Assembly: GCA_947259215.1 (NCBI GenBank)
Contig: CAMYLJ010000021.1
Coordinates: 1 to 64,000, forward strand
Reading direction: 5' to 3'
DNA from: an uncultured delta proteobacterium
GTDB lineage: Bacteria > Myxococcota_A > UBA9160 > JAFDET01
DNA: 64,000 bases
Numbering within the stretch: position 1 is the first letter of the stretch; each line of letters starts with the position of its first letter. The notes beneath the pieces are model-generated. The model made no database searches, was not told where the DNA came from, and saw only the letters and a program-made list of their open reading frames with translations. The position numbers and the translations under genes were made by a program. This document shows, one piece after another, positions 27,380 through 40,894 of this stretch.

Positions 27380-27616
27380 CTAGCCGGAGGAGCGCCGCAG
27401 CTCCTTGGGCGCGCGCGTGCGATAGAAGCGCCGGGGGCGATTGGTCAGCCAGCGCTCGTCCACGGTGGAAGCGCTGGCCTGCTCGGCGGGGGCGCCGCTG
27501 GCGCAGGCCGGGCTGCAGTACCAGACGCCGCGGGACTCCACCGACGCGAGCCCCAGGCTGGCGAGGCAGCGCGGACAGGAGCCGCTGTACGGGCGATAGT
27601 CGGTACGCGCGGTCAT
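27380..27616 (-). CDS. Small zinc-ribbon protein
   Basis: A 78-residue protein, start ATG 27616. CPRC (15-18) and YCSPAC form a treble-clef or ribbon-type metal site: GSCPRCLASLGLASVESRGV, then WYCSPACASG. A basic C-terminus (RPRRFYRTRAPKELRRSSG) may bind nucleic acid or membrane. It lies between aroA (convergent) and the divergent ABC operon. Function unknown; a longer upstream frame exists but lacks conserved-looking sequence. Confidence 0.6.
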   Translation of the reverse strand: MTARTDYRPYSGSCPRCLASLGLASVESRGVWYCSPACASGAPAEQASASTVDERWLTNRPRRFYRTRAPKELRRSSG

Positions 27617-27668
27617 GGGCGGGCGCAGGGTAGAGAGCGACCGCGAGAACGGCAAGCATCTGAGGAGC

Positions 27669-28409
27669 ATGGCGACAGACGATCCGACACGCGAGCGGCG
27701 CGGGTGCCGCATCCAGGCCCGGGAGCTCACCCGGCGCTTCGGCGATCACGTGGCCCTCGACGCCCTGTCCCTGGACGTGGCGCCCGGCGAGGCTTTCGGG
27801 CTGCTCGGCGCGAACGGCGCCGGCAAGACCACCTTCATCCGCCTCGTGACGGGCTACCTGGTTCCCACCACGGGCGAGGTGACGATCGACGGACTCTCGC
27901 CGGGGGGCGCGCCCCAAGCCGTGCACGCGCGCATCGGCTACGTGGCCGAGACCTCGCGCATCTACCCCGAGCTGCGGGTGCGCGGCTTCCTGCGCTTCGC
28001 GGGCGGGGTGCGCGGCCTGGCGGGCGACGTCCTGCACGAGGCGGTGGAGCGAACCCTCGAGCGATTCTCCCTCCGCGACGTGGCCGGGCGCATGGTGGGG
28101 AATCTCTCCAAGGGCTACCAGCAGCGGGTCTCCCTGGCCCAGGGCTTCCTGCACGATCCGCCGCTCGTGATCGTGGACGAGCCCTCCAGCGGACTCGACC
28201 CGCTCCAGCAGGGCGAGGTCCGCGCGGTGCTGGGCGCCGCCGGCGGCGAGCGCACGGTCCTGCTCTGCACACACGACCTGGCGGAAGCCCGCGAGCTGAC
28301 CCAGCGGGTAGCCGTGCTGCGAGCGGGACGGCTCGTGGCGCTGGGCCGCACCGAGGAGGTGCTCGGCGGCGACCCGCTCGCCCTCTTCCGGGAGGACGGC
28401 GCCCCGTGA
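27669..28409 (+). CDS. ABC transporter ATPase, GldA/NatA-like
   Basis: A 246-residue ABC ATPase: Walker A LLGANGAGKTTF, Q-loop region TGYLVPTTGE, signature LSKGYQQRVSLAQ, Walker B LVIVDEPSSGLDPLQ and switch His in LLCTHDLAEA. The LSKGYQQR signature and DPLQ box are typical of the ATPase of gliding-type (GldA) and multidrug/Nat exporters. The stop overlaps the GTG start of the permease (GTGA at 28406-28409) and a GldG-like subunit follows, so this is the motor of a three-gene system. In Bacteroidota Gld ABC proteins are needed for gliding or surface-protein export; in other phyla their cargo is unknown. The start is ATG 27669, close behind GAGGAG. Confidence 0.92.
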   Translation: MATDDPTRERRGCRIQARELTRRFGDHVALDALSLDVAPGEAFGLLGANGAGKTTFIRLVTGYLVPTTGEVTIDGLSPGGAPQAVHARIGYVAETSRIYPELRVRGFLRFAGGVRGLAGDVLHEAVERTLERFSLRDVAGRMVGNLSKGYQQRVSLAQGFLHDPPLVIVDEPSSGLDPLQQGEVRAVLGAAGGERTVLLCTHDLAEARELTQRVAVLRAGRLVALGRTEEVLGGDPLALFREDGAP

Positions 28410-29200
28410 TCCCGCTGCGCGCCCTCATCCGCAAGGAGCTGGCCGTCCTGTTCACGTCGCCCGTGGCGTACCTGACCCTCGCCATGGTGGGCGTCGTCAC
28501 GGCGCTGGTCTTCTTCGACCACCTGCGGGTCTACAACCAAACGCTCTTCGTGTGGGCGAGCACCACCATGGGCGGCTTCGAGACCGACACCATCCCCGAC
28601 TACATCAACCTGCGCACCCTGGTCTTCCTGCCGGTGATGGAGCAGCTGGCGCTGATGTTCATCGGACTCGTGCCGCTGGTGACCATGCGGGTCTTCTCCG
28701 AGGAGCGCGCCCGCGGCACCGACGAGCTGCTCGCGACGACCCAGCTCTCTCCCAACCAGATCGTCGCGGGCAAGTTCCTGGTGGCGTACCTCTTCGTCGC
28801 GATCATGCTGGCGGTGAGCTTCGTGTACCCGGCCACCTCGATCGTGACTGCCGGCCTCGGGCTGAAGCACCTGGTGGCCGTCTACGTCGGCCTCTTCACC
28901 CTGGGGATCGGAATCGCGTCCATCGGGCTCGTCTGCTCGGCCTGGACCACGAGCCAGCTCGTGGCCGCCGTCTCCGCCTACGCGGTGGCGTTCGTCGTGT
29001 ACGACTTCAGCTGGGCCACGGCGTTCGTGCGCGACCGGGAGTCGCTCGCCTCCCTGCTCGACGCCATCTCGATCCACCCGCGCTTCGGGGGCTTCGCCGA
29101 GGGGCTCGTAATCGGCGCGGACGTGGCCTACTTCGCCGCGCTGGCGCTCGTCTGCTTCGGCCTGGCCCGCGTGTCCCTGGACCTGGAGCGGGTGCGCTAG
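28406..29200 (+). CDS. ABC transporter permease, GldF-like
   Basis: A 264-residue ABC-2 type permease. The N-terminal coupling segment PLRALIRKELAVLFTSPVAY is the hallmark of GldF/NosY-like proteins, followed by about six membrane helices, including LALMFIGLVPLVTMRVFSEE and RGTDELLATTQLSPNQIV in the cytoplasmic turn. GTG 28406 overlaps the ATPase stop and has GGGAGG upstream. The next gene starts directly after its stop, so the three subunits are translationally linked. Confidence 0.9.
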   Translation: MIPLRALIRKELAVLFTSPVAYLTLAMVGVVTALVFFDHLRVYNQTLFVWASTTMGGFETDTIPDYINLRTLVFLPVMEQLALMFIGLVPLVTMRVFSEERARGTDELLATTQLSPNQIVAGKFLVAYLFVAIMLAVSFVYPATSIVTAGLGLKHLVAVYVGLFTLGIGIASIGLVCSAWTTSQLVAAVSAYAVAFVVYDFSWATAFVRDRESLASLLDAISIHPRFGGFAEGLVIGADVAYFAALALVCFGLARVSLDLERVR

Positions 29201-30730
29201 GTGCGGGAGCTCGGACTCGTCGGCGCCATCGCGATCGCCGCGGGCGTGGGCTCCTACTACGTCACCGGCGAGTTCGGGCGCTTCGGGCAGGTGAACGTCG
29301 CGCTCGGGGGGCTGGCGCTGGCGCTCTATGCGGTCCGCGCCCTGGGACGCATGCGTCGCCTGGGCGGCACGCCGGTGGCGCGCCGCATGCTGACCACGCG
29401 CGCCGCGCTGCTCGTGGCCGTGGTCGCCGCGGCGGTGGCACTCGAGCGCGGCGCGGCGCGCCTGGACCTGCGCTGGGACTGGACCCTCGACCGGCGCCAC
29501 GAGCTCTCGCCGGCCAGCCGCGACGCGCTGGCGGCGCTGCCGGACGGCCTGGTCGCGACGCTCTACTACGACGCGGAGGATCCGCGCATCCGCGGCACGC
29601 GGCTGCTGCTCGAGTCCTTCGCCACCAGCGGTCGCGTCCAGGTGCGCGAACGCGTGCTGGACGACGCTCTGGAGGACCTCGACCGCTTCGGCATCTCGTC
29701 GTCCAACAGCGTGCTGCTCGAGGTGGACGACCGCTGGGAGCTCGTCGGCCGGCCCAGCGAAGGCACCGTGTGGGAGGCGCTCGAGCGCCTGCGCGCGCTC
29801 GAGCGGCGCACCGTGGTGTACTACGCACGCGGCGCCGGCGAGGGCAACCTGCTGCGCAGCGACGCGCTCGGCTTCTCCGGGCTGGCCGCCGCCCTTCAGA
29901 CCGAGGGCTACCGGGTGCGCGACCTGGTGATGGCCGCGACGGACGCGATCCCACAGGACGCGGCGGCGCTGCTGGCGATCGCGCCGGAGCGACCCTGGCG
30001 GGAGGAGAGCGTGGCGCTCGTGGACGGCTACCTCGCTGGCGGCGGCGGGCTGGTGGCGCTGCTCGAGCCGGGCCGGGAGACGGGCCTCGAGCCGCTGCTG
30101 GAGCGCTGGGGCTTCGAGACGCCGGACGCGGTGGTGGTAGACCCGGCGTCGGGCCCGATCGAAGGCGGCGCGCCCGGCGTGAACCCCCTGGCCCACGCCT
30201 ACGACCGCGACCACCCGATCACGAAGCCCCTGGACGCGAACCGCATGGCCTTCTTCCTGGGCGCGCGGCCGGTGCGCGCCGCCCGCAAGCCGGAGCCCGA
30301 GGATCGGCTCTCGGTGCTCGTCCACTCGAGCCCACGCGCCTGGCTGTCGCGCGACTTCGAACGGATTGCGCGCGGCCTGCCGCCCCAAGATCGCGACGGC
30401 GCCCCGGACGACCGCCACCCGCTGGCCAGCGCCGGCCGCTATCCCCGCGGCGAACGCGAAGCGCGCGTCGTCGTCTTCGGCGACAGCCGCTTCGCGAGCA
30501 ACGGCCACCTGCGCGCGCTCTTCAACCTGGACCTGATCCTGAACAGCGTGAACTGGGTGGCCCAGCGCGCCGAAGGGCGGCTCACGCGGCGCCCGAACAT
30601 CCTGACCGAGATCCAGCAGCCGCTGACGCCGCAGGAGTCCCTCCGCATGTTCTACGGCGTGGGCCTGCTGATCCCGGAGCTGCTGCTGATGGCCGCCGCC
30701 ATCGCCTGGCTCCGCCAACGCAGCGCCTAG
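29201..30730 (+). CDS. GldG-like membrane/periplasmic ABC subunit
   Basis: A 509-residue protein starting at GTG 29201, immediately after the permease stop. Two N-terminal helices and one at ~65-82 precede a large periplasmic domain with the LDRRHELSPASRDALAALPD and VVYYARGAGEGNL segments found in the GldG/DUF4350-type family. One more helix closes the C-terminus (LIPELLLMAAAIAWL). The periplasmic part (~90-490) resembles a ThuA/GATase-like fold in relatives and is thought to bind a substrate or partner. The stop codon's last base is the first base of the large inverted repeat at 30730. Confidence 0.85.
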   Translation: MRELGLVGAIAIAAGVGSYYVTGEFGRFGQVNVALGGLALALYAVRALGRMRRLGGTPVARRMLTTRAALLVAVVAAAVALERGAARLDLRWDWTLDRRHELSPASRDALAALPDGLVATLYYDAEDPRIRGTRLLLESFATSGRVQVRERVLDDALEDLDRFGISSSNSVLLEVDDRWELVGRPSEGTVWEALERLRALERRTVVYYARGAGEGNLLRSDALGFSGLAAALQTEGYRVRDLVMAATDAIPQDAAALLAIAPERPWREESVALVDGYLAGGGGLVALLEPGRETGLEPLLERWGFETPDAVVVDPASGPIEGGAPGVNPLAHAYDRDHPITKPLDANRMAFFLGARPVRAARKPEPEDRLSVLVHSSPRAWLSRDFERIARGLPPQDRDGAPDDRHPLASAGRYPRGEREARVVVFGDSRFASNGHLRALFNLDLILNSVNWVAQRAEGRLTRRPNILTEIQQPLTPQESLRMFYGVGLLIPELLLMAAAIAWLRQRSA

Positions 30731-30802: not shown

Positions 30803-31216
30803 TCAGCTGCCGGAGGTGGGCTTGGTCGCGAGGGCGATGCCGCGGGCGCCGGCCTGCTGGGCGACGTCGAGGATGTTGACGGCCGTGCCGAGCAGCACCT
30901 TGCGGTCGCCGCGCAGGATCACCAGCTTCTCGCGCGCCTGATCGAGGCGCTCCTTCAGCACTGCCGAGAGCTGCTCGTTGCTGACCACGCGCCCGTCTAC
31001 CTCGATCTCGCCGCGCTCGGTGACGGTCACCGTGACGCCGCTCGGGGTCGTGTCCGCCACCGCCGCCTCGGGCAGGTCCACCGTCTTGCCCTGACTCGAG
31101 ATCACGGACGTGGTGACCATGAAGATGATCAGAAGCACCAGGAAGACGTCGGTGAGCGGGGTGATGTTGATCTCGGCGATGATCTGGTCGTCGGCGAGAT
31201 CCTCGCTGCTATGCAT
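30803..31216 (-). CDS. exbD: ExbD/TolR-type biopolymer transport protein
   Basis: A 137-residue single-helix protein: short cytoplasmic N-terminus, INITPLTDVFLVLLIIFMVT (helix with the conserved functional Asp in LTDV), then a periplasmic domain (GEIEVDGRVVSNEQLS, LVILRGDRKVLLGTAVNILD). With the ExbB-like protein it forms the proton-driven stator that energises TonB- or Tol-type partners. ATG 31216 overlaps the end of the exbB-like gene by eight bases. A further upstream frame exists but includes no conserved sequence. Confidence 0.92.
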   Translation of the reverse strand: MHSSEDLADDQIIAEINITPLTDVFLVLLIIFMVTTSVISSQGKTVDLPEAAVADTTPSGVTVTVTERGEIEVDGRVVSNEQLSAVLKERLDQAREKLVILRGDRKVLLGTAVNILDVAQQAGARGIALATKPTSGS

Positions 31217-31904
31217 GCTGGGGCTGGGCACCCGGCACCTCCTGGGTCGGCGCATCCGGCGTGGGGGCGGCCGTGCCGCCCGCCGACTCCACGTAGAGCA
31301 GCGCCTGGACGAAGCGCTCGCACGCCCGCGCCAGCGTGTTGGCGATGTTGGTGACGCGCACGGACAGGTAGTTGAAGAAGAGCAGCGCGGTGATGGCCAC
31401 CGCCAGGCCCACCGCCGTGGCGACCAGTGCCTCGGAGATGCCGGCCGCTACCACCTCGAAGCCCCCCGCGCCCTCGGCCGCCATGGCCTGGAAGGCGCGG
31501 ATGATGCCGATCACGGTGCCGAAGAGGCCGACGTACGGGGCCAGGGAGCCCACGGTGCCGAGGATCCACAGGCCGCGTCGCAGGCCGTGCACCGACTCCT
31601 GGCGCGAGGTCGCCAGCACGCGGTCCAGGTCCTCGAGCGCGATGTTCTTCCAGCGCAGGCCGTCGAGGAAGATGTTGGCGGCCGGTGAGTCGGCCCGCTC
31701 GCAGAGCGAACGCACGGTGGCCACGTCGCGGCGCACGAGCGCGTCCACGACCTCGCGGGTCAGGGCCTTCGTGTGCGCGTCCATTCCCCGGTAGCGCCAG
31801 AAGCGCTCGAACACGATGCCCATGCAGACGATCGACGCGATCCCGAGCGGGATCGTCGTGTGCCAGGCCTGCCGCATCAGCTCCAGAATCTCGCCGGTTT
31901 CCAC
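31209..31904 (-). CDS. exbB: ExbB/TolQ/MotA-family proton channel
   Basis: A 231-residue inner-membrane protein with three helices (WHTTIPLGIASIVCMGIVFE; GTVGSLAPYVGLFGTVIGII; LVATAVGLAVAITALLFFNY). The second has the MotA/TolQ/ExbB signature GLFGTVIGI-RAF. It pairs with the ExbD-like protein to convert proton flow into motion. GTG 31904 is chosen because AGAGGAGG lies 6 bases upstream; a longer frame to 31949 lacks a ribosome site. It is divergent from the TonB-like gene, the likely partner. Confidence 0.92.
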   Translation of the reverse strand: METGEILELMRQAWHTTIPLGIASIVCMGIVFERFWRYRGMDAHTKALTREVVDALVRRDVATVRSLCERADSPAANIFLDGLRWKNIALEDLDRVLATSRQESVHGLRRGLWILGTVGSLAPYVGLFGTVIGIIRAFQAMAAEGAGGFEVVAAGISEALVATAVGLAVAITALLFFNYLSVRVTNIANTLARACERFVQALLYVESAGGTAAPTPDAPTQEVPGAQPQHA

Positions 31905-32228
31905 GGCTGCCTCCTCTCGCCCCTTCGACCCTTCCCCGGGATGCCGCACGCTCCGAACGGTCTTGCGCGCAACGCATCAGGGTAGCTGAGAACATTGACA
32001 CCCTCGACCCCCTCACGTACGTTTTTCGTTCCTGGGACGGGGCGTTAGCGCGGCGAAGCGTTCGAATAACCCCGGTCCATGCCGCGTCGAACCGGGGTCA
32101 TTTCGACGGGGTCGTCGAAGCGTCGCAAAGACCGGGCATTGGCCCGAGGCCTGCAAGCGCAAGAGCCGGAAGGCGCTGCGCAGGCGACGGGAAGCCGATC
32201 GAAAGCGACGCGGGAGAGAGCGGACAGG
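31905..32228 (+). promoter_or_regulatory. Divergent intergenic region with a sigma-70-like promoter
   Basis: TTGACA (31995-32000), 17 bases, then TACGTT (32018-32023) point rightward toward the TonB-like gene: a perfect -35 and a modest -10. A frame is open before ATG 32229 but has low coding quality. No convincing leftward promoter for the exbBD genes was found. No other gene is visible. Confidence 0.45.
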
Positions 32229-33410
32229 ATGATCGGAGAGTCCAGCGAAGACCTCGTCGTGCGGCGGCGGCAGCGACGCGGGTCGCCCATGCGCACCGCC
32301 CGTGTGGGGGTTGCCCTCCATACTCAGGCCGCTGGCGCGGGTGCGGCTGCGATCGACTTCCCCGGCATCCTGATCCCGGATGAAGAGAGCGAACGCAGCC
32401 GCTGGATCAGCTCCGGGATCGCGCTGCTGGTGCACGCCTCCGTGGTGGGCCTCATCCTGCTCATCGGCTGGCTGGCGCCCGAGGAGATCAAGGAGAAGCT
32501 GATCCCGGTGCGGATCCTGAACGAGCCGCCGGCCGCGAAGAGCGATCCGGCGCCGGCGCGGCGGGTGCTGGCGGAGCGCCGCTCCCGCGTCTTCCAGCCC
32601 CAGGCCCAGGCCGTGAAGCCCCAGGTGGAGAACCCGCGGGTCGTGGCCCGCGCCGCACCCCAGGTCGCCTCCCAGAAGATCGAGATGAATGCCGTGAACC
32701 AGGTGGCAGCGCCCCGGCAGGTAAGCCGCAGGGCCGTCTCGGTGGAGAAGGTGTCCGCAGTGCGTTCGGCCGCGCCCCAGGCGGTGCAGGGCCGCGTCGA
32801 CGTGGGCGCGACCTCCGGACCGGCCCTCAAGGGCCCGATCGAGGTGGACGCTCCGGTCGGCGCCTCGGTAGGTCCGCGCCAGGTGGCCCGCGTGGGGAAC
32901 ACCATCGGCACGGGTACGGTGAGGCTCGGCGACGGCTCGTCCGTTCAGGAAGGCATCGATTCGAACCGCGACGTCCTCGGCTCGGCGACCGGCCCGCGCC
33001 TGGCCGACGTGCGCGCCAACGTGGGCGAGGGCCTGATGGACGGCAGCGGCGGCACCGGCGCGGGCGGCCAGGCTGGCGTGACCTTCGGCCAGTGCTTCAA
33101 GCGTCCCGAGGTGCAGGAGTACTGGAACGTGATCCACCGTCGCATGCGCTCGCGCTGGGTGCTGCCGCCGGACGTGCCCGCCAACCAGCAGATCCGGCTC
33201 CGCTTCAGCCTCGACGCCGCCGGCTCGGCCCACGGTGTGGAGCTCGTGCCGGGCGGCGACCCGCGTCTCGGTCGCAGCGCCGTCGACGCCCTGCGCAGCG
33301 CCGCGCCCTTCCCGCCCATGGGCGATCGCGTCCGCTGCCTCTCCGGCGCGCCGATCGTCGGCACCTTCCGAAACCCGCTGGGCGGCACTGGGACGGGTGG
33401 TGGCCGCTAG
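32229..33410 (+). CDS. TonB/TolA-like energy-transducing protein
   Basis: A 393-residue protein. A short cytoplasmic N-terminus precedes one membrane helix (SSGIALLVHASVVGLILLIG). A periplasmic spacer of ~220 residues, rich in Ala, Val, Pro and Gln, follows (PQAQAVKPQVENPRVV, QVAAPRQVSRRAVSVEKVSA). The globular C-terminus has the TonB/TolA pattern EYWNVIHRRMRSRWVLPPDV and IRLRFSLDAAGSAHGVELV, with two Cys (FGQCFKRP; RVRCLSG) possibly bonded. It is the natural partner of the divergent ExbB/ExbD. Its stop overlaps the start of the giant repeat protein, implying coupled translation and a working link. The ATG 32229 start is a choice; an earlier in-frame ATG (32079) would add 50 basic residues. 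Confidence 0.88.
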   Translation: MIGESSEDLVVRRRQRRGSPMRTARVGVALHTQAAGAGAAAIDFPGILIPDEESERSRWISSGIALLVHASVVGLILLIGWLAPEEIKEKLIPVRILNEPPAAKSDPAPARRVLAERRSRVFQPQAQAVKPQVENPRVVARAAPQVASQKIEMNAVNQVAAPRQVSRRAVSVEKVSAVRSAAPQAVQGRVDVGATSGPALKGPIEVDAPVGASVGPRQVARVGNTIGTGTVRLGDGSSVQEGIDSNRDVLGSATGPRLADVRANVGEGLMDGSGGTGAGGQAGVTFGQCFKRPEVQEYWNVIHRRMRSRWVLPPDVPANQQIRLRFSLDAAGSAHGVELVPGGDPRLGRSAVDALRSAAPFPPMGDRVRCLSGAPIVGTFRNPLGGTGTGGGR

Positions 33411-36400
33411 CCGGCTCGCGGCACTCCTTCCCGCGCTCGCCTTCGCCGCCCTGCCCTTCACCGCTGCGGCGAAGCCGCCCGTGGTGCTGCTCTACGACGA
33501 CCAGGAGCAGCTCAAGGAGAAGCAGAGCGACACCAACGGCGACGGCAGCTACGACGAGATCGTCCGCTACCAGAACGGCAAGCCCGCCAGCGCCGAGCAG
33601 GACTCGAACCACGACGGCCGCATCGACATCTGGATCGCCTACGGCCCGGACGGCCGGCCCACGCGCCAGGAGGCCGACACCAACGGCGACGGCAAGCGCA
33701 ACCAGTGGATCGAGTTCAGCGGCGCCGACCCCTCAGTGCAGCGCGACGACGCGGACCACGACGGTACGCCGGACAAGGTGCTGCGCTTCGAGAACGGCAA
33801 GCCCGCCGAGCTCGAGGAGGACTCGGACCTCGACGGCCGGCCGGACCGCTGGGTGAAGTACCGGGACGGCGAGATCGCCCTGGTGGAGGAGGCACGCCGG
33901 GGCGGCGGCAAGGTGGACCTGCGAGCCGAGTTCAACCCGGACGGCAGCAAACGCCGCGAGCAGCAGGACACCACCGCCGACGGCAAGCTCGACATCCTGA
34001 TCCTGTACGAGCGGGGTGTGAAGTCCCGCGTCGAAGAGGACACCGACGCCGACGGCACGCCCGAGATCGTCACCTTCTACCAGGACGAACTCATCCTGAG
34101 CCGCGAGGCCGACACCACGGGCGACGACCGCCGCGACACCGTCTCCACCTATCAGAAAGGTCGCGAGCGCAAGCAGGTGCGCGACCAGGACGGCGACGGC
34201 AGGCCCGACTTCATCGCGACCTTCGAGCCCAACGGCGACCGCGAGCGCGAGGAGATCGACGCCCGCGGCACCGGGCGGCTCGACCTGGTGCGCAGCTACG
34301 AGCGCGGGATCCGGGTCCTGGAGGAAGAAGACACGGACGGCGACGGCAAGCCGGACGTGGTGACCCAGTACGACGGCGACACCCCGCTCTCCAGCGGCGC
34401 CGACACCAACCGCGACGGCAAGCAGGACACCTTCATCGAGTACCGGGACGGCAAGAAGAACCAGCAGCGCGAGGACCGGGACGGCGACGGAGAGGTGGAC
34501 GCCGTCTACGCCTTCGACGACGCCGGAAACGTCTCCCGGGAAAGCCTGGACGAGGATGGCGACGGCTTCTTCGAGGTGCAGGCCGAGAGCCGGGACGGCA
34601 AGCTGGTCCAGCGGAGCGTGCTGCCGAAGGACGGCGAGAAGCCGAAGCGCAGGGAGTTCCACGCCGACGGCCGGCTCGTGCGGGTCGAGCTCGACGAGAG
34701 CGGCGACGGCGAGGTGGACCTCTGGAACTTCTACGCGCCGGACGGGAAGCTCGAGAAGCAGGAGCAGGACGCGGACCTGGACGGCCGGGTGGATGCCTGG
34801 GTCACCCTGGACACGAAGAGCGGCAAGGAGACCCGGGTCATCAAGGACACGGACGGTGACGGCGAGCCCGACTCCTGGCGCACCAACGACGCCGAAGGCG
34901 TGCCCCAGCGCCTGGAAGCGGACAAGACACGCGACGGCAAGCCGGACCGCATCGTGCTCTTCGAGGGCGGCAAGCCCGCGCGCTTCGAAGAGGACACTTC
35001 AGGCGACGGCAAGCCGGACCTTCGCGGCGCGCTCGAGGCCGACGGGAGCGTCTCGATCGAGGAGCGCGACACCGACGGCGACGGGACCTTCGACAACCGG
35101 GTCAGCTTCGCCGAGGGCGAGAAGCGGCGCGAAGAGCGCGACACCGACGGCGACGGCAAGTACGACGTGAGTCTCCAGTATCGAGGCGGCCAGCAGGTGC
35201 GTCAGGAGCAGGACGCCGACGGCGACGGGCGCTTCGAGTCGGTGCTGCTCTTCGAGGCGGGCCGCCAGGCCACCCAGGAGCGTGACAGCGACGGCGACGG
35301 CAAGACCGACGTCCGGGTCGAGCTCGACCCCGAGGGCCGACCTGCCCTGGAGCAGGTAGACACGGACCGGGACGGCGGCTTCGACGTGGTCAAGCGCTAC
35401 GAGGCCGGCACCCTCATCCGCGAGGAGAACGACGGCGACAGCGACGGACGCTACGAGCTCGTGACCCTGCACGCCGGCGGCGGCCCTACCCGTTCGGAGC
35501 TCGACGCCGACGGCGACGGCGTGCCGGAGGTGGTGATCGAGTACGCCGACGGCAAGAAGGCGCGCCAGACCGAGGACAAGGACGGCGACGGACGGGTCGA
35601 CGTGGTGACGGAGTTCGGCCCGGACGAGCAGCCGACGCGCCTGCTGGCCGACACGGACGGCGACGGCAGCCGGGAGACCACCACCATCCTGGAGAAGGGC
35701 CAGACGGTCCGCACCGAAAAAGACCTGAACGCCGACGGCCGCCCCGACGTGGTCGCCTACTACGAGAAGGGCGCGATCGTCCGCCAGGAAGAGGACACGG
35801 ACTTCGACGGCACGATCGACAAGCGCAGCGTCGCGGGCAGGGGCGGCAGCCAGGTGCAGGAAGCGGACACCGACGGCAACGGCAAGATCGACACCTGGCT
35901 CAGCGTCGACGCCAAGGGCAACGTCGTGAAGCGCCAGGAGGACACCACCGGGGACGGCAAGCCGAACCGCACCCTGGCCTTGCAGGGAGAGCGGGTGGTG
36001 CGCCTGGAGGAAGACCGCTCCGGCCGCGGCTGCACGGACCTTGTGCAGGCCTACGACCCCGACGGCAACGTGAACGAGGAGCGCAAGGACACCTCCGGCA
36101 ACTGCAAGATCGACGTCTGGACGTTCCTCGAGGGCGGCCGCATCGTGCGCCAGGCCCAGGACACCAGCGGGAACGGCCGGCCGGACGTGCTGACCCAGTT
36201 CGACGGCGAGGGCCGGGCCACCATCCAGGAGGTGGTCGAAGGCAAGGGCAAGCAGCCCAGCAAGCGCCTGTTCCTCACCAGCGACGGCAACGTCTCCGCC
36301 CAGTGCGTGGACTCCACGGGCGACGGGCGCCTCGACGCCCGCTCCGTCGTCCGCGGGGGTGTGGTCCCCGAGGTGCTCTACGACACCACCGGCGACGGCG

Positions 36401-36666
36401 TCGCCGACCTGCGCGAGGTCTACGACGGCAACGACCTGGTTCGGGTGGACGCCGACACCAACGGCGACCGCCGTCCCGACACCGTCCAGTACATGGCGGG
36501 CGGCCAGATGACTCGCCAGGACGAGGACCACGACGGCGACGGCGTCGCCGACGCCCGCTTCGAGGGCGACCAGGCCGCCAGCCTGCCCCCCGGCACGAAG
36601 CTCCCGGGCGCTCGCTTCGGCAAGCTGGAGTGCGGACGCTTCTCGCGCTTCTGGGCGCAGCGCTAG
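33400..36666 (+). CDS. Giant exported protein of ~40 calcium-loop/beta-hairpin repeats
   Basis: About 1088 residues. GTG 33400 (or 33397) overlaps the TonB-like stop; a signal peptide (LAALLPALAFAALPFTAAA) follows. The rest is ~40 tandem units of 23-26 residues with consensus D-T-D-G-D-G-K-x-D, four residues, Y/F-x-x-G, then a charged xxxxEE, for example DTDGDGKYDVSLQYRGGQ and DTDGDGKPDVVTQY. The first half is an EF-hand/thrombospondin-3-like calcium loop; the second resembles the tyrosine-glycine hairpins of MORN/Rhs-type repeats. Two longer spacers interrupt at ~34600-34680 and ~36230-36300. The C-terminus (GAR-FGKLECGRFSRFWAQR) has a Cys. A long, calcium-stiffened solenoid outside the inner membrane is predicted. 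I know similar repeat proteins only as uncharacterised; no function is assigned. Confidence 0.85.
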   Translation: MAASRLAALLPALAFAALPFTAAAKPPVVLLYDDQEQLKEKQSDTNGDGSYDEIVRYQNGKPASAEQDSNHDGRIDIWIAYGPDGRPTRQEADTNGDGKRNQWIEFSGADPSVQRDDADHDGTPDKVLRFENGKPAELEEDSDLDGRPDRWVKYRDGEIALVEEARRGGGKVDLRAEFNPDGSKRREQQDTTADGKLDILILYERGVKSRVEEDTDADGTPEIVTFYQDELILSREADTTGDDRRDTVSTYQKGRERKQVRDQDGDGRPDFIATFEPNGDREREEIDARGTGRLDLVRSYERGIRVLEEEDTDGDGKPDVVTQYDGDTPLSSGADTNRDGKQDTFIEYRDGKKNQQREDRDGDGEVDAVYAFDDAGNVSRESLDEDGDGFFEVQAESRDGKLVQRSVLPKDGEKPKRREFHADGRLVRVELDESGDGEVDLWNFYAPDGKLEKQEQDADLDGRVDAWVTLDTKSGKETRVIKDTDGDGEPDSWRTNDAEGVPQRLEADKTRDGKPDRIVLFEGGKPARFEEDTSGDGKPDLRGALEADGSVSIEERDTDGDGTFDNRVSFAEGEKRREERDTDGDGKYDVSLQYRGGQQVRQEQDADGDGRFESVLLFEAGRQATQERDSDGDGKTDVRVELDPEGRPALEQVDTDRDGGFDVVKRYEAGTLIREENDGDSDGRYELVTLHAGGGPTRSELDADGDGVPEVVIEYADGKKARQTEDKDGDGRVDVVTEFGPDEQPTRLLADTDGDGSRETTTILEKGQTVRTEKDLNADGRPDVVAYYEKGAIVRQEEDTDFDGTIDKRSVAGRGGSQVQEADTDGNGKIDTWLSVDAKGNVVKRQEDTTGDGKPNRTLALQGERVVRLEEDRSGRGCTDLVQAYDPDGNVNEERKDTSGNCKIDVWTFLEGGRIVRQAQDTSGNGRPDVLTQFDGEGRATIQEVVEGKGKQPSKRLFLTSDGNVSAQCVDSTGDGRLDARSVVRGGVVPEVLYDTTGDGVADLREVYDGNDLVRVDADTNGDRRPDTVQYMAGGQMTRQDEDHDGDGVADARFEGDQAASLPPGTKLPGARFGKLECGRFSRFWAQR

Positions 36667-36834: not shown

Positions 36835-38673
36835 ATGAGCCCGCTGGAGCTCGGAGGCGTGGGCCTCTGGCAGCTCCTCAGCGCGGGTGTCGTGGGCCTC
36901 TGGCTGGGCGGCGTGCTGGCGCTGACCCGGCTGCCGAGAACGGCTCTCTCTGGCGCCATCTGGGGGCTCGTGGTGTGCGCTGCCCTCTGGTCGCTGGGCG
37001 ATCTCATCACCGGCCTGGCGCAGGATCTCCTCTGGGAGCAGATCGGTCTGAGCCTCCTCTACTCGGGGGCGATCTTCCTGCCGTCCTTCTGGTGGATCCT
37101 GGCACTGCGCTGGGCCGAGGATCGCGGCGTGGCTCCGCCGCTGGACACCCGCCTCTGGAGCCGCGTGCCGCTCCTCTTCGCCGGCGTGATGTGGCTCATC
37201 ATGCTCACGAACCCCTGGCACGGTCAGTTCGGGGTCCCCATCGTCGGCGGGCGCAACCTCTACGGCCCGCTGTGGTGGGTGATGGCGCTTCCGAACTATC
37301 TGCTGATCTTCGGCGCGATCGCCGTGGAGCTGCGGGTGCTGCGGCGCATCGAGGCGCGGGCGATCCGAAGACAGGGAGCTTTCGGGATCGCCGCCGGCGG
37401 CGTGGTCCTGCTGGCCAACCTGGCCTACGTGTCGGGCGCGGGCTCCCACGCGAACACCACGCTTCCGGTGCTGACCGCCGCCGCGGTGATCCTGGTGATC
37501 GGCATGGTGCGAGAGGGGCTCTACGGCGTCCTGCCGGTGGCCCTGCCGGTGATCGCCTCCAGCGACCCGGACGGGCTCCTGGTGGTGCGGCCCGACGGAC
37601 GCCTGGTGCACGCCAATCCGCGCGCGCGGGAGCTGCTGGGAACGCTCGAGGTCGCCACCGGCACGCGCATTCCCGACTCCCTGGCGCCCCGGCTGATCGA
37701 GCCGGACGGCACGCGGGTAGATCGCTCCGCCCCGGACTGGGAGGAGCGCTGGTGGCAGGGCGTGCTCGGGTGCGGCGGCATCCTCTATCGCTACGAACGC
37801 GGCGACGCCACGCCCTGGCTGCGCATGAGCGCCCAGCCCGTACGCGGGCGGCGCGACCGGCTCATCGCCCACTGCCTGCGCGCCCACGACGCGACCGACG
37901 AACAGCGCGCCGAGGTCGAGCTGCACCGGGCGCGTCGGCTCGAGAGCGTCGCCCAGCTCTCCCGCGGCGTGGCCCACGACTTCCAGAACCTGCTGACGGT
38001 GGCGCGGGGCAACGCCGAGCTGCTGCTCGACCGCATGCCGGGCACACCGGAGGTCCAGCGCAAGCTCCACAAGATCCTGCGTTCCTGCGAGCAGGCCGGC
38101 GAGCTTGCGGATCAGCTCCAGCTCTACGCCGGAGCCGTGTCTCCCACGCGGCGTCCCGTGGACCTCTCGGAGCTGGCTCGCGACACCTACGAGATGCTCG
38201 ATGCCGACGTCCTCTCCGCCCCGATCGACCGCAGCATCGACGTGGAGCTCGACCACACCGCCGACCCCCTGCTGATCGAAGCCGATCCAACCCAGCTTCG
38301 GCAGCTGCTGCTGAACCTGTTCGTGAACGCCCGCGACGCTCTCCACGAGCGCGGCGGCGAGATCCACGTCTGCACGGGCCGCGCCACCCTCGACCCGGCG
38401 CTCGCCCGGCACCTCGTGCTCGGGCGCGACCGCCCGTCGGCCGCCTACGCCTACCTGACCGTCTCGGACACCGGCACCGGCATGGACCCACAGACCCAGG
38501 AGCGCATCTTCGAGCCCTTCTTCAGCACCAAGGGAAAGCAGCGCGGAATCGGGCTCTCCACGGTGTTCGGGATCGCGCGCTCCCACGGCGCCCTGATCGA
38601 GCTCGAGAGCGAGCTCGGCCGGGGCACGGTCTTCACGGTCTACTTCCCGATCGCGGACGACGCCACGGACTGA
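36835..38673 (+). CDS. Membrane sensor histidine kinase
   Basis: A 612-residue kinase. Residues ~1-240 contain about seven membrane helices (7TM-type N-terminal sensor), ~245-360 a PAS-like domain (SSDPDGLLVVRPDGRLVHAN), then the phospho-acceptor box SRGVAHDFQNLLTVARGN with His381 and the ATPase core: N box QLLLNLFVNARDAL, G1 SDTGTGMDPQTQERIFEPFF, G2 KQRGIGLSTVFGI. The HDFQN box places it with NtrB/HWE-like two-component kinases that often pair with sigma-54 activators; indeed such a gene follows 216 bases downstream. What it senses is unknown. It lies downstream of the repeat-protein gene, separated by a stem-loop. Confidence 0.92.
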   Translation: MSPLELGGVGLWQLLSAGVVGLWLGGVLALTRLPRTALSGAIWGLVVCAALWSLGDLITGLAQDLLWEQIGLSLLYSGAIFLPSFWWILALRWAEDRGVAPPLDTRLWSRVPLLFAGVMWLIMLTNPWHGQFGVPIVGGRNLYGPLWWVMALPNYLLIFGAIAVELRVLRRIEARAIRRQGAFGIAAGGVVLLANLAYVSGAGSHANTTLPVLTAAAVILVIGMVREGLYGVLPVALPVIASSDPDGLLVVRPDGRLVHANPRARELLGTLEVATGTRIPDSLAPRLIEPDGTRVDRSAPDWEERWWQGVLGCGGILYRYERGDATPWLRMSAQPVRGRRDRLIAHCLRAHDATDEQRAEVELHRARRLESVAQLSRGVAHDFQNLLTVARGNAELLLDRMPGTPEVQRKLHKILRSCEQAGELADQLQLYAGAVSPTRRPVDLSELARDTYEMLDADVLSAPIDRSIDVELDHTADPLLIEADPTQLRQLLLNLFVNARDALHERGGEIHVCTGRATLDPALARHLVLGRDRPSAAYAYLTVSDTGTGMDPQTQERIFEPFFSTKGKQRGIGLSTVFGIARSHGALIELESELGRGTVFTVYFPIADDATD

Positions 38674-38715
38674 GCCGCGTCGCGCGCGGCGCCCGCGTTT
38701 CGCGGGCCCAGCCGC

Positions 38716-38744
38716 GTGACCGTCGCTTCGCGTCACTGCGTGAC
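38716..38744 (+). promoter_or_regulatory. Candidate enhancer site (three GTGAC half-sites)
   Basis: GCGTGACCG at 38714-38722 and again at 38738-38746 flank GTCAC at 38732-38736, so GTCAC-TGC-GTGAC (38732-38744) is a perfect palindrome and the outer site pairs with it in inverse order. It lies ~100 bases before the -24/-12 element, the normal distance for binding of a sigma-54 activator. Autoregulation by the following gene is inferred. Confidence 0.4.
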
Positions 38745-38839
38745 CGCCCGTTGGCGCTCGCGACGCCGGATCGCGTCGGTTCCCGGCAGATGCCGTCGGA
38801 CTTCGACTGCGGGTGCGGACGCGGGAAGCGGCGGACGCG

Positions 38840-38855
38840 CGGCACATCGCTTGCA
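38840..38855 (+). promoter_or_regulatory. Sigma-54 (-24/-12) promoter candidate
   Basis: CGGCACATCGCTTGCA: GG at 38841-38842 and GC at 38853-38854 are separated by exactly 10 bases, and both GGCAC and TTGCA match the consensus fully. Transcription would start near 38866, giving a ~24-base leader with GGAGGAA before ATG 38890. Because it precedes a sigma-54 activator gene, self-control is likely. Confidence 0.6.
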
Positions 38856-38889
38856 GCTTCCCTTCGGCCCGACCGCCGGAGGAACCCTG

Positions 38890-40239
38890 ATGCGTATCCG
38901 CTCGATCTTGTGGATCGGCCGTGGCGACGAGCTCGGCTGCGGCGTCGTCGCCGACGCTCCCAGCCTGGACGTGGCCTGGGCCGCGGACCTGGAAGACGCC
39001 CTGGCGCTGCCGCTGGGAAGCTTCGAGGGCGCGGTCGTCGACGCGCGCGACGCCGCAGGAGCCGCGGCGGACCTGCGCCGCCTACGGCGGCTGCGTGGCG
39101 CCCCGAGCGTGCTGGTGCGGATCGACGCCCACGAAGCGCCGAGCGTCCCTGTCCTGATGGCCGCGGGCGCGGCGGACGTGGTGCTGCGCAGCGGCGACGG
39201 CGGAGGCAGCGAGGAGCTGGTGGAGCGGATCGCGAAGCTGCCCTCATCGCTGGGAGCGCCGCCCGCAGCGGGCTCGGGGCGCCAGGCGGCGCCCCACCTG
39301 CGCGGCGTGGTGGGGGAGAGCGCGGCCCTGCGGGCCGCCTTCGAGCTGGCGGAGCGGGCGGCCTCGTCCCAGGCCACGGTGCTCGTGGCCGGCGAGACGG
39401 GCACCGGCAAGGAGCTCCTGGCCCGCGCCATCCACGCCGGCGGACCGCGCGCCAGCAAGCCCTTCCTGGCCGTGAACTGCGCCGCTTTCACCGAGACGCT
39501 GCTCGAGAGCGAGCTCTTCGGCCACGTGCGCGGGGCGTTCACCGGGGCGGACAAGGAGAAGCGCGGCCTGTTCGAGGGCGCCGACGGCGGCACCCTCTTC
39601 CTGGACGAGATCGGCGAGACCGCGCCCGGCTTCCAGGCGAAGCTGCTGCGCGTGCTCCAGGAACGCGAGGTGCGCCCGGTCGGCGGCGCGCGCACGCGGA
39701 GCGTGGACGTGCGGGTCGTCGCCGCCACCAATCGCGAGCTCCCGCACGAGGTCGAGTGCGGGCGCTTCCGGGAGGACCTCTACTACCGGCTCGCCGTCTT
39801 CCCGATCCAGGTGCCGCCGTTGCGGGAGCGGCCCGAGGACGTGTTGCCGCTGGCACGCCACTTCCTGGCGCGCCACGGGCGCCGCGACGGCAAGCGCGGC
39901 CTGCGCCTGTCGCGCGACGCGGGCCACCTGCTCCAGGCCTATCCCTGGCCCGGCAATGTGCGCCAGCTCGACAACGAGATGCAGCGGGTCGTGGCCCTCT
40001 CGGAGCCCGGCGCGGCCGTGACACCGGCCCTGCTGTCGCCGCCGATCCTGGGCATCGCCGAGCCCGTGACAGCGGTCGGTGAGGGCGAGACCCTGCGCGC
40101 CACCCTGGACCGGGTCGAGGCCTGGCTGCTGCGCCGCGCCCTCGACGCCCACGACGGCCGCCGCGCCGCCACCGCCCGCCGCCTGGGGCTCACGCGCGAG
40201 GGCCTCTACAAGAAGATGAAGCGGCTGGGCATCGAATGA
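38890..40239 (+). CDS. Sigma-54-dependent transcriptional activator with degenerate receiver
   Basis: A 449-residue enhancer-binding protein. Residues ~1-115 have receiver-like alternation and an Asp at 51 (GAVVDARDA), but lack the acidic pair near the N-terminus and the conserved Lys, so phosphorylation is doubtful. Residues ~137-375 are the AAA+ domain: Walker A GETGTGKE (168-175), the sigma-54 contact loop GAFTGA (215-220), Walker [12 protein letters not shown], and arginine-finger region [14 protein letters not shown]. The C-terminus is a Fis-type helix-turn-helix ([18 protein letters not shown]). ATG 38890 has GGAGGAA 5 bases before it. It follows a sensor kinase gene and a near-perfect -24/-12 promoter. 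Its targets may include the upstream envelope genes, but no other clear sigma-54 site was found there. Confidence 0.93.
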
Positions 40240-40289
40240 GGCCTGCCGGGCGGGTTGCGGGAATCCCTCACGAGAGACAGACTATACGC

Positions 40290-40508
40290 ATGAAACGTAC
40301 GAATCTTGTGCTTGATGAGGAACTTCTCGAGGAGGCCACCCGCCTCTCCGGTGAGAAGACCTACTCGGCCGCCGTGATGCGCGCGCTCGAGGACTTCGTA
40401 CGCCGGGCCAAGGCGCGGCAGATCCTCGAGCTCCGAGGGTCCGGCCTGTGGGAGGGAGATCTCCGCGAGATGCGTGGAGACAGACGCCGCAAGAAGAAGG
40501 CGTCGTGA
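40290..40508 (+). CDS. vapB: Antitoxin of a VapBC module
   Basis: A 72-residue protein: KRTNLVLDEELLEEATRLSG is a ribbon-helix-helix-type DNA-binding start and the helix ALEDFVRRAKARQILELRG plus GSGLWEGDLREMR matches the toxin-clamping tail of VapB (DUF2191) antitoxins. ATG 40290. The stop overlaps the toxin start (GTGA, 40505-40508). The RHH dimer probably represses its own promoter. Confidence 0.9.
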   Translation: MKRTNLVLDEELLEEATRLSGEKTYSAAVMRALEDFVRRAKARQILELRGSGLWEGDLREMRGDRRRKKKAS

Positions 40509-40894
40509 TCCTGGTCGACACCTCCGTCTGGATCGAGGTCTTCAGGGCCCGTCGGCCCTTCGATCTGGAGGCGGCCGTGGACCTCGACGATGTCGTGACC
40601 TGCCTCCCGATCGTGCAGGAGATTCTCCAGGGCTTCCGGGAGGAGGGCGCGTACCGAAGGGCCCGCGACGCCATGCTCTCGTTCCCGATCGTCGAGTCAC
40701 CCCTTGGGAGCGACATCTTCCTGGACGCAGTGGGTCTCTACCGGGCCGCCCGCCGAGGCGGGAGAGCGGTCCGGTCTGCCGTGGATTGCCTCATCGCCGC
40801 CTGCGCGATACGCCACGACCTCGAAGTGCTGCATCGAGACCGGGACTTCGCGGAGATCGCACGAGTCTCGGCGCTCCGCCAACGGACTCCATGA
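40505..40894 (+). CDS. vapC: VapC-type PIN-domain ribonuclease toxin
   Basis: A 129-residue PIN domain. All acidic metal ligands are visible: Asp5 in ILVDTSVWIE, Glu39 in IVQEILQGF, Asp94 in SAVDCLIAACA, and Asp112/114 in LHRDRDFAEIA. Such enzymes cut tRNA or rRNA when freed from VapB. GTG 40505 overlaps the antitoxin stop by four bases. The module stands between a sigma-54 activator and a PQQ dehydrogenase with no other mobile-element mark. Confidence 0.93.
   Translation: MILVDTSVWIEVFRARRPFDLEAAVDLDDVVTCLPIVQEILQGFREEGAYRRARDAMLSFPIVESPLGSDIFLDAVGLYRAARRGGRAVRSAVDCLIAACAIRHDLEVLHRDRDFAEIARVSALRQRTP

What the first reader, a model, noticed from the sequence alone, without database searches (positions are those of the whole stretch)
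33400..36666. About 40 tandem DxDGDG / YxxG repeats in one exported protein
The units keep a 23-26 residue period for nearly the whole mature protein, combining an EF-hand-like calcium loop with a Tyr-Gly hairpin and an acidic end. The pattern predicts a very long calcium-dependent solenoid. Only two spacers break the array, and a single Cys-containing cap closes it. The overlap with a TonB-like gene ties it to an energised envelope process.
Basis: partly seen in the sequence, partly recalled or inferred. Interest (0 to 1): 0.75.

Follow-up and report, generated by a model that had tools for sequence, protein, structure and literature searches.

The report
Calcium-loop ribbon protein of TonB systems
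This is a very long, exported repeat protein with about 40 predicted calcium-binding loops, and across two bacterial phyla its gene is almost always found beside the genes of the TonB motor that powers import through the outer membrane, so it looks like an undescribed part of that machine.

Summary
The repeat is real: window 33400-36666 (+) encodes a 1088-aa exported protein with 42 consecutive 24-26-aa units. 37 units keep the D-x-[DNST]-x-[DN]-G-x-x-[DEN] ligand positions; the strict motif occurs 34 times against 0.23 in shuffles. AlphaFold gives a confident chain of beta-hairpins joined by these loops (pLDDT 87.5; 11-unit fragment 94.1, pTM 0.82), nearest to OspA single-layer sheets and MORN/YD-repeat sheets, so 'ribbon' fits better than 'solenoid'. 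Calcium was not tested.

The main new result is gene context. In 20 of 20 relatives the layout is exbD< exbB< | tonB-like> repeat>, with near-fixed length (median 1090 aa). The long form is in 36 of 40 genomes of this class, 0 of 149 other Myxococcota. In Desulfobacterota, shorter arrays are followed by exbB (14 of 15; the fifteenth by exbD-tonB), usually with exbD and tonB. Eight loci hold a TonB-dependent receptor, several with nickel/cobalt, corrinoid or tungstate uptake genes. Thirty-one loci of short-array relatives show no ExbB, ExbD or TonB. Tol-Pal lies elsewhere in the genome.

Best reading: a periplasmic accessory subunit of a TonB-ExbBD energiser, probably a calcium-stiffened strut. 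The partnership is well supported; the strut mechanism is inferred.

The parts
33400..36666 (+). DxDGDG/YxxG repeat protein, 1088 aa, exported, 42 units
   Evidence: orthologues
33400..33471 (+). predicted signal peptide (residues 1-24, AAA|KP), no lipobox
   Evidence: read from the sequence; low pLDDT residues 1-23
33529..36600 (+). array of 42 beta-hairpin units (residues 44-1067), each a 9-residue DxDGDGxxD loop, a strand, a tight turn and a strand
34621..34692 (+). degenerate unit 16 (first 'spacer'), in register, also degenerate in orthologues
36235..36309 (+). degenerate unit 38 (second 'spacer'), carries invariant C969 near its end
36031..36105 (+). C878 and C902, one repeat apart; candidate inter-unit disulfide
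36601..36666 (+). C-terminal cap with conserved LxCGxFxxFW motif (C1078, W1085 invariant in 26 orthologues)
32079..33410 (+). TonB-like protein, 443 aa: TM helix, Pro/Ala-rich spacer, TonB C-terminal domain with two invariant Cys 81 residues apart
31209..31949 (-). ExbB/TolQ proton-channel subunit, divergent from the TonB-repeat pair
   Evidence: PF01618 111 bits; conserved position
30803..31255 (-). ExbD/TolR subunit
   Evidence: PF02472 92 bits; conserved position

Best explanation
The protein is a periplasmic accessory subunit of a dedicated TonB-ExbB-ExbD energiser. It is a long ribbon of beta-hairpins joined edge to edge, with a Dx[DN]xDG calcium loop on one side of nearly every hairpin. 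Calcium filling the loops would neutralise its strong negative charge and stiffen it, so that it acts as a strut or scaffold between the inner-membrane ExbBD-TonB motor and the outer membrane, helping TonB reach and work on its receptor (in Desulfobacterota probably receptors for metals and corrinoids). Shown here: repeat, export signal, conserved loops, predicted fold, near-fixed length in this class, genetic linkage to TonB/ExbBD in two phyla. Inferred: calcium occupancy, stiffness, periplasmic location, contact with TonB or the receptor, and the strut role.
For: exbD< exbB< | ton> rep> in 20/20 relatives; TonB-like and repeat genes missing together in genus g34. Different gene order but same partners in Desulfobacterota: exbB directly downstream of the array in 14/15 loci, exbD-tonB in the fifteenth. 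TonB-dependent receptors confirmed by Pfam in 8 loci, with NikL, BtuF-like, WtpA/TupA, DUF4198 neighbours. Negative control: 0/31 loci of short-array relatives have ExbB, ExbD or TonB hits. Separate complete Tol-Pal in the same genome. AF2 pLDDT 87.5, fragment pTM 0.82. Lengths 1085-1096 aa in most orthologues despite 42-64% identity. Mature pI 4.4, 258 D+E against 153 K+R.
Against: No interaction, localisation or calcium data. In the window's own class the TonB-dependent receptors are not next to this module, and genus g34 has 6-8 receptors without it, so receptors there do not need it. The full-length model has pTM 0.37, so overall shape is unknown. Window ExbB is closer to own TolQ (37%) than to the Desulfobacterota ExbB (28%), so the two phyla may have built the link separately and roles could differ.
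Confidence: 0.5

Rival explanations
1. Metal-binding buffer or handover protein: the loops bind the imported metal (or calcium needed to keep the cargo or receptor right) in the periplasm, and the length simply gives capacity.
For: Desulfobacterota loci carry NikL, BtuF-like, WtpA/TupA and ZnuA genes; weak sequence match to lanmodulin, E 5.6e-4.
Against: The loop is the generic oxygen-ligand calcium type, without the Cys/His expected for nickel, cobalt or zinc; near-fixed length with position-specific units (653/1040 best matches to the same index) argues for a defined shape, not a sponge.
Confidence: 0.2
2. Part of a trans-envelope motility or surface machine like Myxococcus Agl-Glt, driven by the TolQR/ExbBD-like motor rather than serving nutrient import.
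For: Myxococcota host; window ExbB is TolQ-like; GldA/F/G-like ABC genes lie next to exbD in 13 of 20 loci.
Against: In Desulfobacterota the same protein type sits with TonB-dependent receptors and metal uptake genes; the GldG match is weak (18.6 bits, cut-off 390); other Glt components were not searched for.
Confidence: 0.12
3. Surface adhesin of the Lsa25.6 type that only happens to lie next to a TonB system.
For: Best curated family hit is Lsa25.6 family adhesin, 101.6 bits.
Against: Below that family's cut-off of 150 bits; no lipobox or surface anchor; the neighbour link holds in two phyla while short-array Lsa25.6-like relatives lack it (0/31).
Confidence: 0.08
4. Closed hollow shell like Rhs/Tc/teneurin YD-repeat cages, which could enclose a cargo.
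For: Lowest Foldseek E-values are Rhs cores and teneurins (8e-22 full length).
Against: TM-scores only 0.1 (full) and about 0.2 (fragment), rmsd about 60 and 21-29 A, against TM 0.43 to OspA; no Rhs family hit and no C-terminal cargo domain.
Confidence: 0.07

Closest known systems
Lsa25.6 family (NCBIfam NF050087, a Leptospira adhesin family)
   Same: Same kind of DxDGDG hairpin repeats; best curated hit, 101.6 bits
   Different: Below the family cut-off (150 bits); that model is 196 aa, this protein has 42 units and a TonB/ExbBD neighbourhood
TtpB/TtpC/TtpD accessory proteins of Vibrio TonB2 systems (PMC6957404)
   Same: Extra proteins encoded with tonB-exbB-exbD; shown there to be essential for TonB2-dependent siderophore uptake
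   Different: TtpD is described there as a TPR protein and TtpB as having a leucine zipper, not calcium-loop hairpin repeats; homology not tested directly here
OspA single-layer beta-sheet (engineered OspA, e.g. 2fkj)
   Same: Best listed TM-score of the 11-unit fragment, 0.43; sheet of stacked hairpins
   Different: OspA is a short surface lipoprotein with no calcium loops; 11% identity
YD/Rhs/teneurin shells and MORN-variant repeats
   Same: Single up-and-down beta-sheet of many strands (78 strands in teneurin, PMC5851990); strongest Foldseek E-values
   Different: TM-scores 0.1-0.26 to the shells; no Rhs Pfam match; MORN_2 matches only 4 of 26 orthologues, weakly
FG-GAP/calcium-blade Dx[DN]xDG motif (PF13517; PMC3123361)
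   Same: Same calcium-loop motif; PF13517 matches at 37 bits; the motif is known to recur in strand-loop-strand contexts, mostly outside the cytoplasm
   Different: Units are 24-aa hairpins, not propeller blades of about 60 aa

Membership tests
TonB-ExbB-ExbD energiser (the neighbouring module) | ExbB/TolQ and ExbD/TolR domains | tested here: met
   PF01618 111 bits, PF02472 92 bits
TonB-ExbB-ExbD energiser (the neighbouring module) | TonB C-terminal domain in the partner protein | tested here: met
   Window protein alone is sub-threshold (17 bits), but 7 of 8 orthologues match TonB_2 (best 1.5e-7) and the profile finds TonB in PDB at E 0.008
TonB-ExbB-ExbD energiser (the neighbouring module) | Not simply the Tol-Pal system | tested here: met
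   Complete tolQRAB-pal-cpoB type operon elsewhere in the genome
Accessory subunit of TonB system | Conserved co-localisation with tonB/exbBD | tested here: met
   20/20 and 15/15 against 0/31 control loci
Accessory subunit of TonB system | Required for TonB-dependent transport | not testable with these tools
   Needs a deletion strain
Lsa25.6 family adhesin | Score above curated cut-off of 150 bits | tested here: not met
   101.6 bits
Dx[DN]xDG calcium-loop proteins | Ligand residues at loop positions 1, 3, 5 and 9 | tested here: met
   37 of 42 units
Dx[DN]xDG calcium-loop proteins | Actual calcium binding | not testable with these tools
   Models contain no ions
Rhs/YD-repeat shell | Rhs/YD family sequence match | tested here: not met
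   No such Pfam family
Rhs/YD-repeat shell | Closed spiral shell | tested here: inconclusive
   pTM 0.37 full length; fragment TM about 0.2 to shells
EF-hand protein | Helix-loop-helix around the loop | tested here: not met
   Strands flank the loops

The most novel reading that the evidence does not exclude
A calcium-stiffened beta-ribbon of near-fixed length that acts as a mechanical ruler or strut of a TonB motor, spanning much of the periplasm and coupling the ExbBD motor to outer-membrane receptors: a new kind of energiser subunit present in at least two phyla.
Probability: 0.3. Interest if true: 0.8.

Novelty: new variant of a known kind. Interest (0 to 1): 0.62.

Why it matters
How TonB transmits force across the periplasm is a long-standing open question. 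A long repeat protein locked genetically to TonB-ExbBD in two phyla gives a new, testable component, and its calcium loops suggest a way in which envelope calcium could set the stiffness or activity of the machine. It would also give a function to proteins in uncultured Myxococcota and Desulfobacterota whose nearest curated name is a Leptospira adhesin.

Tried and rejected
PHROGs gave no match. PDB sequence search gave only lanmodulin, weakly; set aside as motif similarity. The idea that the module is the genome's Tol-Pal system was rejected by finding Tol-Pal elsewhere. The idea that receptors in this class require the module was weakened by genus g34, which has receptors but neither gene. 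Rfam found nothing in 30-41 kb. Literature searches for a TonB-linked DxDxDG repeat protein found no description; only open-licence papers were searchable. 'Recent tandem expansion' was rejected: Tandem Repeats Finder reports no DNA-level array there, and units match the same-index unit of other species (47% identity against 27% between units).

Full report
Observation. The ORF at 33400-36666 (+) is real and encodes a 1088-aa exported protein. It overlaps the end of a TonB-like gene (32079-33410) by 11-14 nt. It holds 42 units of 24-26 aa. The strict motif D.[DNST].[DN]G..[DEN] occurs 34 times against 0.23 in shuffles, and Asp autocorrelation peaks at 24. 37 units keep all four ligand positions. 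There are four cysteines rather than one; C969 and C1078 are invariant, and C878/C902 sit one repeat apart.

Structure. AlphaFold2 with 25 orthologous sequences gives pLDDT 87.5 over the whole protein and a regular series of hairpins, two strands per unit. Global pTM is 0.37, so the overall course of the chain is not determined. An 11-unit fragment gives pLDDT 94.1 and pTM 0.82. Against the PDB the lowest E-values are Rhs/teneurin YD shells, but with TM about 0.2; the best TM-score among the listed hits, 0.43, is engineered OspA, a single-layer sheet of hairpins. Among viral models the best are MORN-repeat proteins. I read this as an edge-to-edge hairpin ribbon with the calcium loops along one side. 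If flat, 86 strands at 4.8 A would be about 41 nm of contour (arithmetic, an estimate only; twist would shorten it).

Conservation. Orthologues of the whole protein occur at 42-64% identity in the order, most of them 1085-1096 aa long. Units keep their identity: a unit's best match in the window protein is the same-index unit in 653 of 1040 cases (chance about 1 in 42). The array is therefore old and of nearly fixed length. In a phylum sample it is present in 31 of 34 genomes of the order and 5 of 6 of a second order of the class, and in none of 149 other Myxococcota at E <= 1e-60. Named loci are uncultured Myxococcota/Deltaproteobacteria MAGs, one of them UBA9160; that the class is GTDB's UBA9160 is my inference.

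Genetic context. In 20 of 20 relatives with enough contig, the layout is exbD< exbB< | ton> rep>. The 20 loci were chosen for having the array on a long contig, not for exbBD. Genus g34 lacks both the array and the TonB-like gene, apart from one weak TonB hit. The window genome has a complete Tol-Pal operon elsewhere and, by PF01618, only one other strong ExbB/TolQ, which is that TolQ. It has one detected TonB-dependent receptor, on another contig.

Independent support. In distant Desulfobacterota-type genomes, arrays of about 500-670 aa (and two of about 340 aa) are encoded with exbB, exbD and tonB. Of 15 surveyed loci with sequence beyond the array, 14 have exbB directly downstream and the fifteenth, L224, a truncated-looking locus, exbD-tonB. 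In L216 tonB lies just upstream of the array instead; in L212, L222 and L226 tonB was not seen, in the last two because the contig ends. TonB-dependent receptors are confirmed in eight loci: L121, L212 (broken frame), L215, L216, L218, L219, L220, L225. Neighbours include NikL (L100, L103, L215), BtuF-like (L225), exported-looking precorrin-methyltransferase-like proteins (L216, L219), WtpA (L218), TupA-like (L220) and ZnuA (L100). As a control, 31 loci with short-array relatives show no ExbB, ExbD or TonB hit. Window ExbB is nearer to its own TolQ than to the Desulfobacterota ExbB, so the alliance may have arisen more than once, which would strengthen the functional link.

Mechanism. Shown: repeat, export signal, conserved loops, predicted fold type, near-fixed length, gene linkage. 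Inferred: that the protein is periplasmic, binds calcium in the loops, is stiff, and supports TonB action. The partnership with a TonB energiser I hold at about 0.85; the strut mechanism at about 0.5. Known TonB accessory proteins (TtpB, TtpC, TtpD in Vibrio) show that extra subunits can be essential for TonB transport (PMC6957404), and Dx[DN]xDG loops bind calcium in many contexts, mostly outside the cytoplasm (PMC3123361).

Novelty. I found no description of a DxDGDG hairpin-repeat protein as part of TonB systems, within an open-licence library. The closest family name, Lsa25.6 adhesin, is not met (101.6 of 150 bits). I file it as a new variant of a known kind: a new type of TonB-system accessory protein built from a known calcium-loop motif.

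Noticed in passing
L216:10392-12197 and L219:11015-11902: Proteins with apparent signal peptides that match precorrin methyltransferases, encoded in TonB/array loci; an exported corrinoid-type methyltransferase is odd.
   Followed up: partly
L140:4721-7317 (G000:C19): The only TonB-dependent receptor detected in the window genome is followed by a small secreted-looking protein that is little more than a TonB C-terminal domain (TIGR01352, 43 bits).
   Followed up: partly
window 40236-40894: VapBC-like pair after the sigma-54 regulator; it is 80-89% identical in two relatives (L065, L071) while the flanking regulator is about 55%, which suggests recent exchange.
   Followed up: no
window 36835-40239: Histidine kinase and sigma-54 regulator downstream of the array; a regulator match also lies downstream in about half of the 20 relatives.
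   Followed up: no
window 27615-30730: ABC ATPase, permease and GldG-like genes beside exbD, kept in 13 of 20 relatives.
   Followed up: partly
L142:3740-5011 and L143:4929-6878: Other short-array proteins in the same genome look like lipoproteins, one with a glycine-zipper-like stretch; not linked to ExbBD.
   Followed up: partly
L111:139-15981: Giant 5280-aa open frame in a Cytophagaceae MAG with about 123 DxDGDG-type motifs.
   Followed up: no
window 32079-33410: Two invariant cysteines 81 residues apart in the TonB-like C-terminal domain, suggesting a disulfide.
   Followed up: partly
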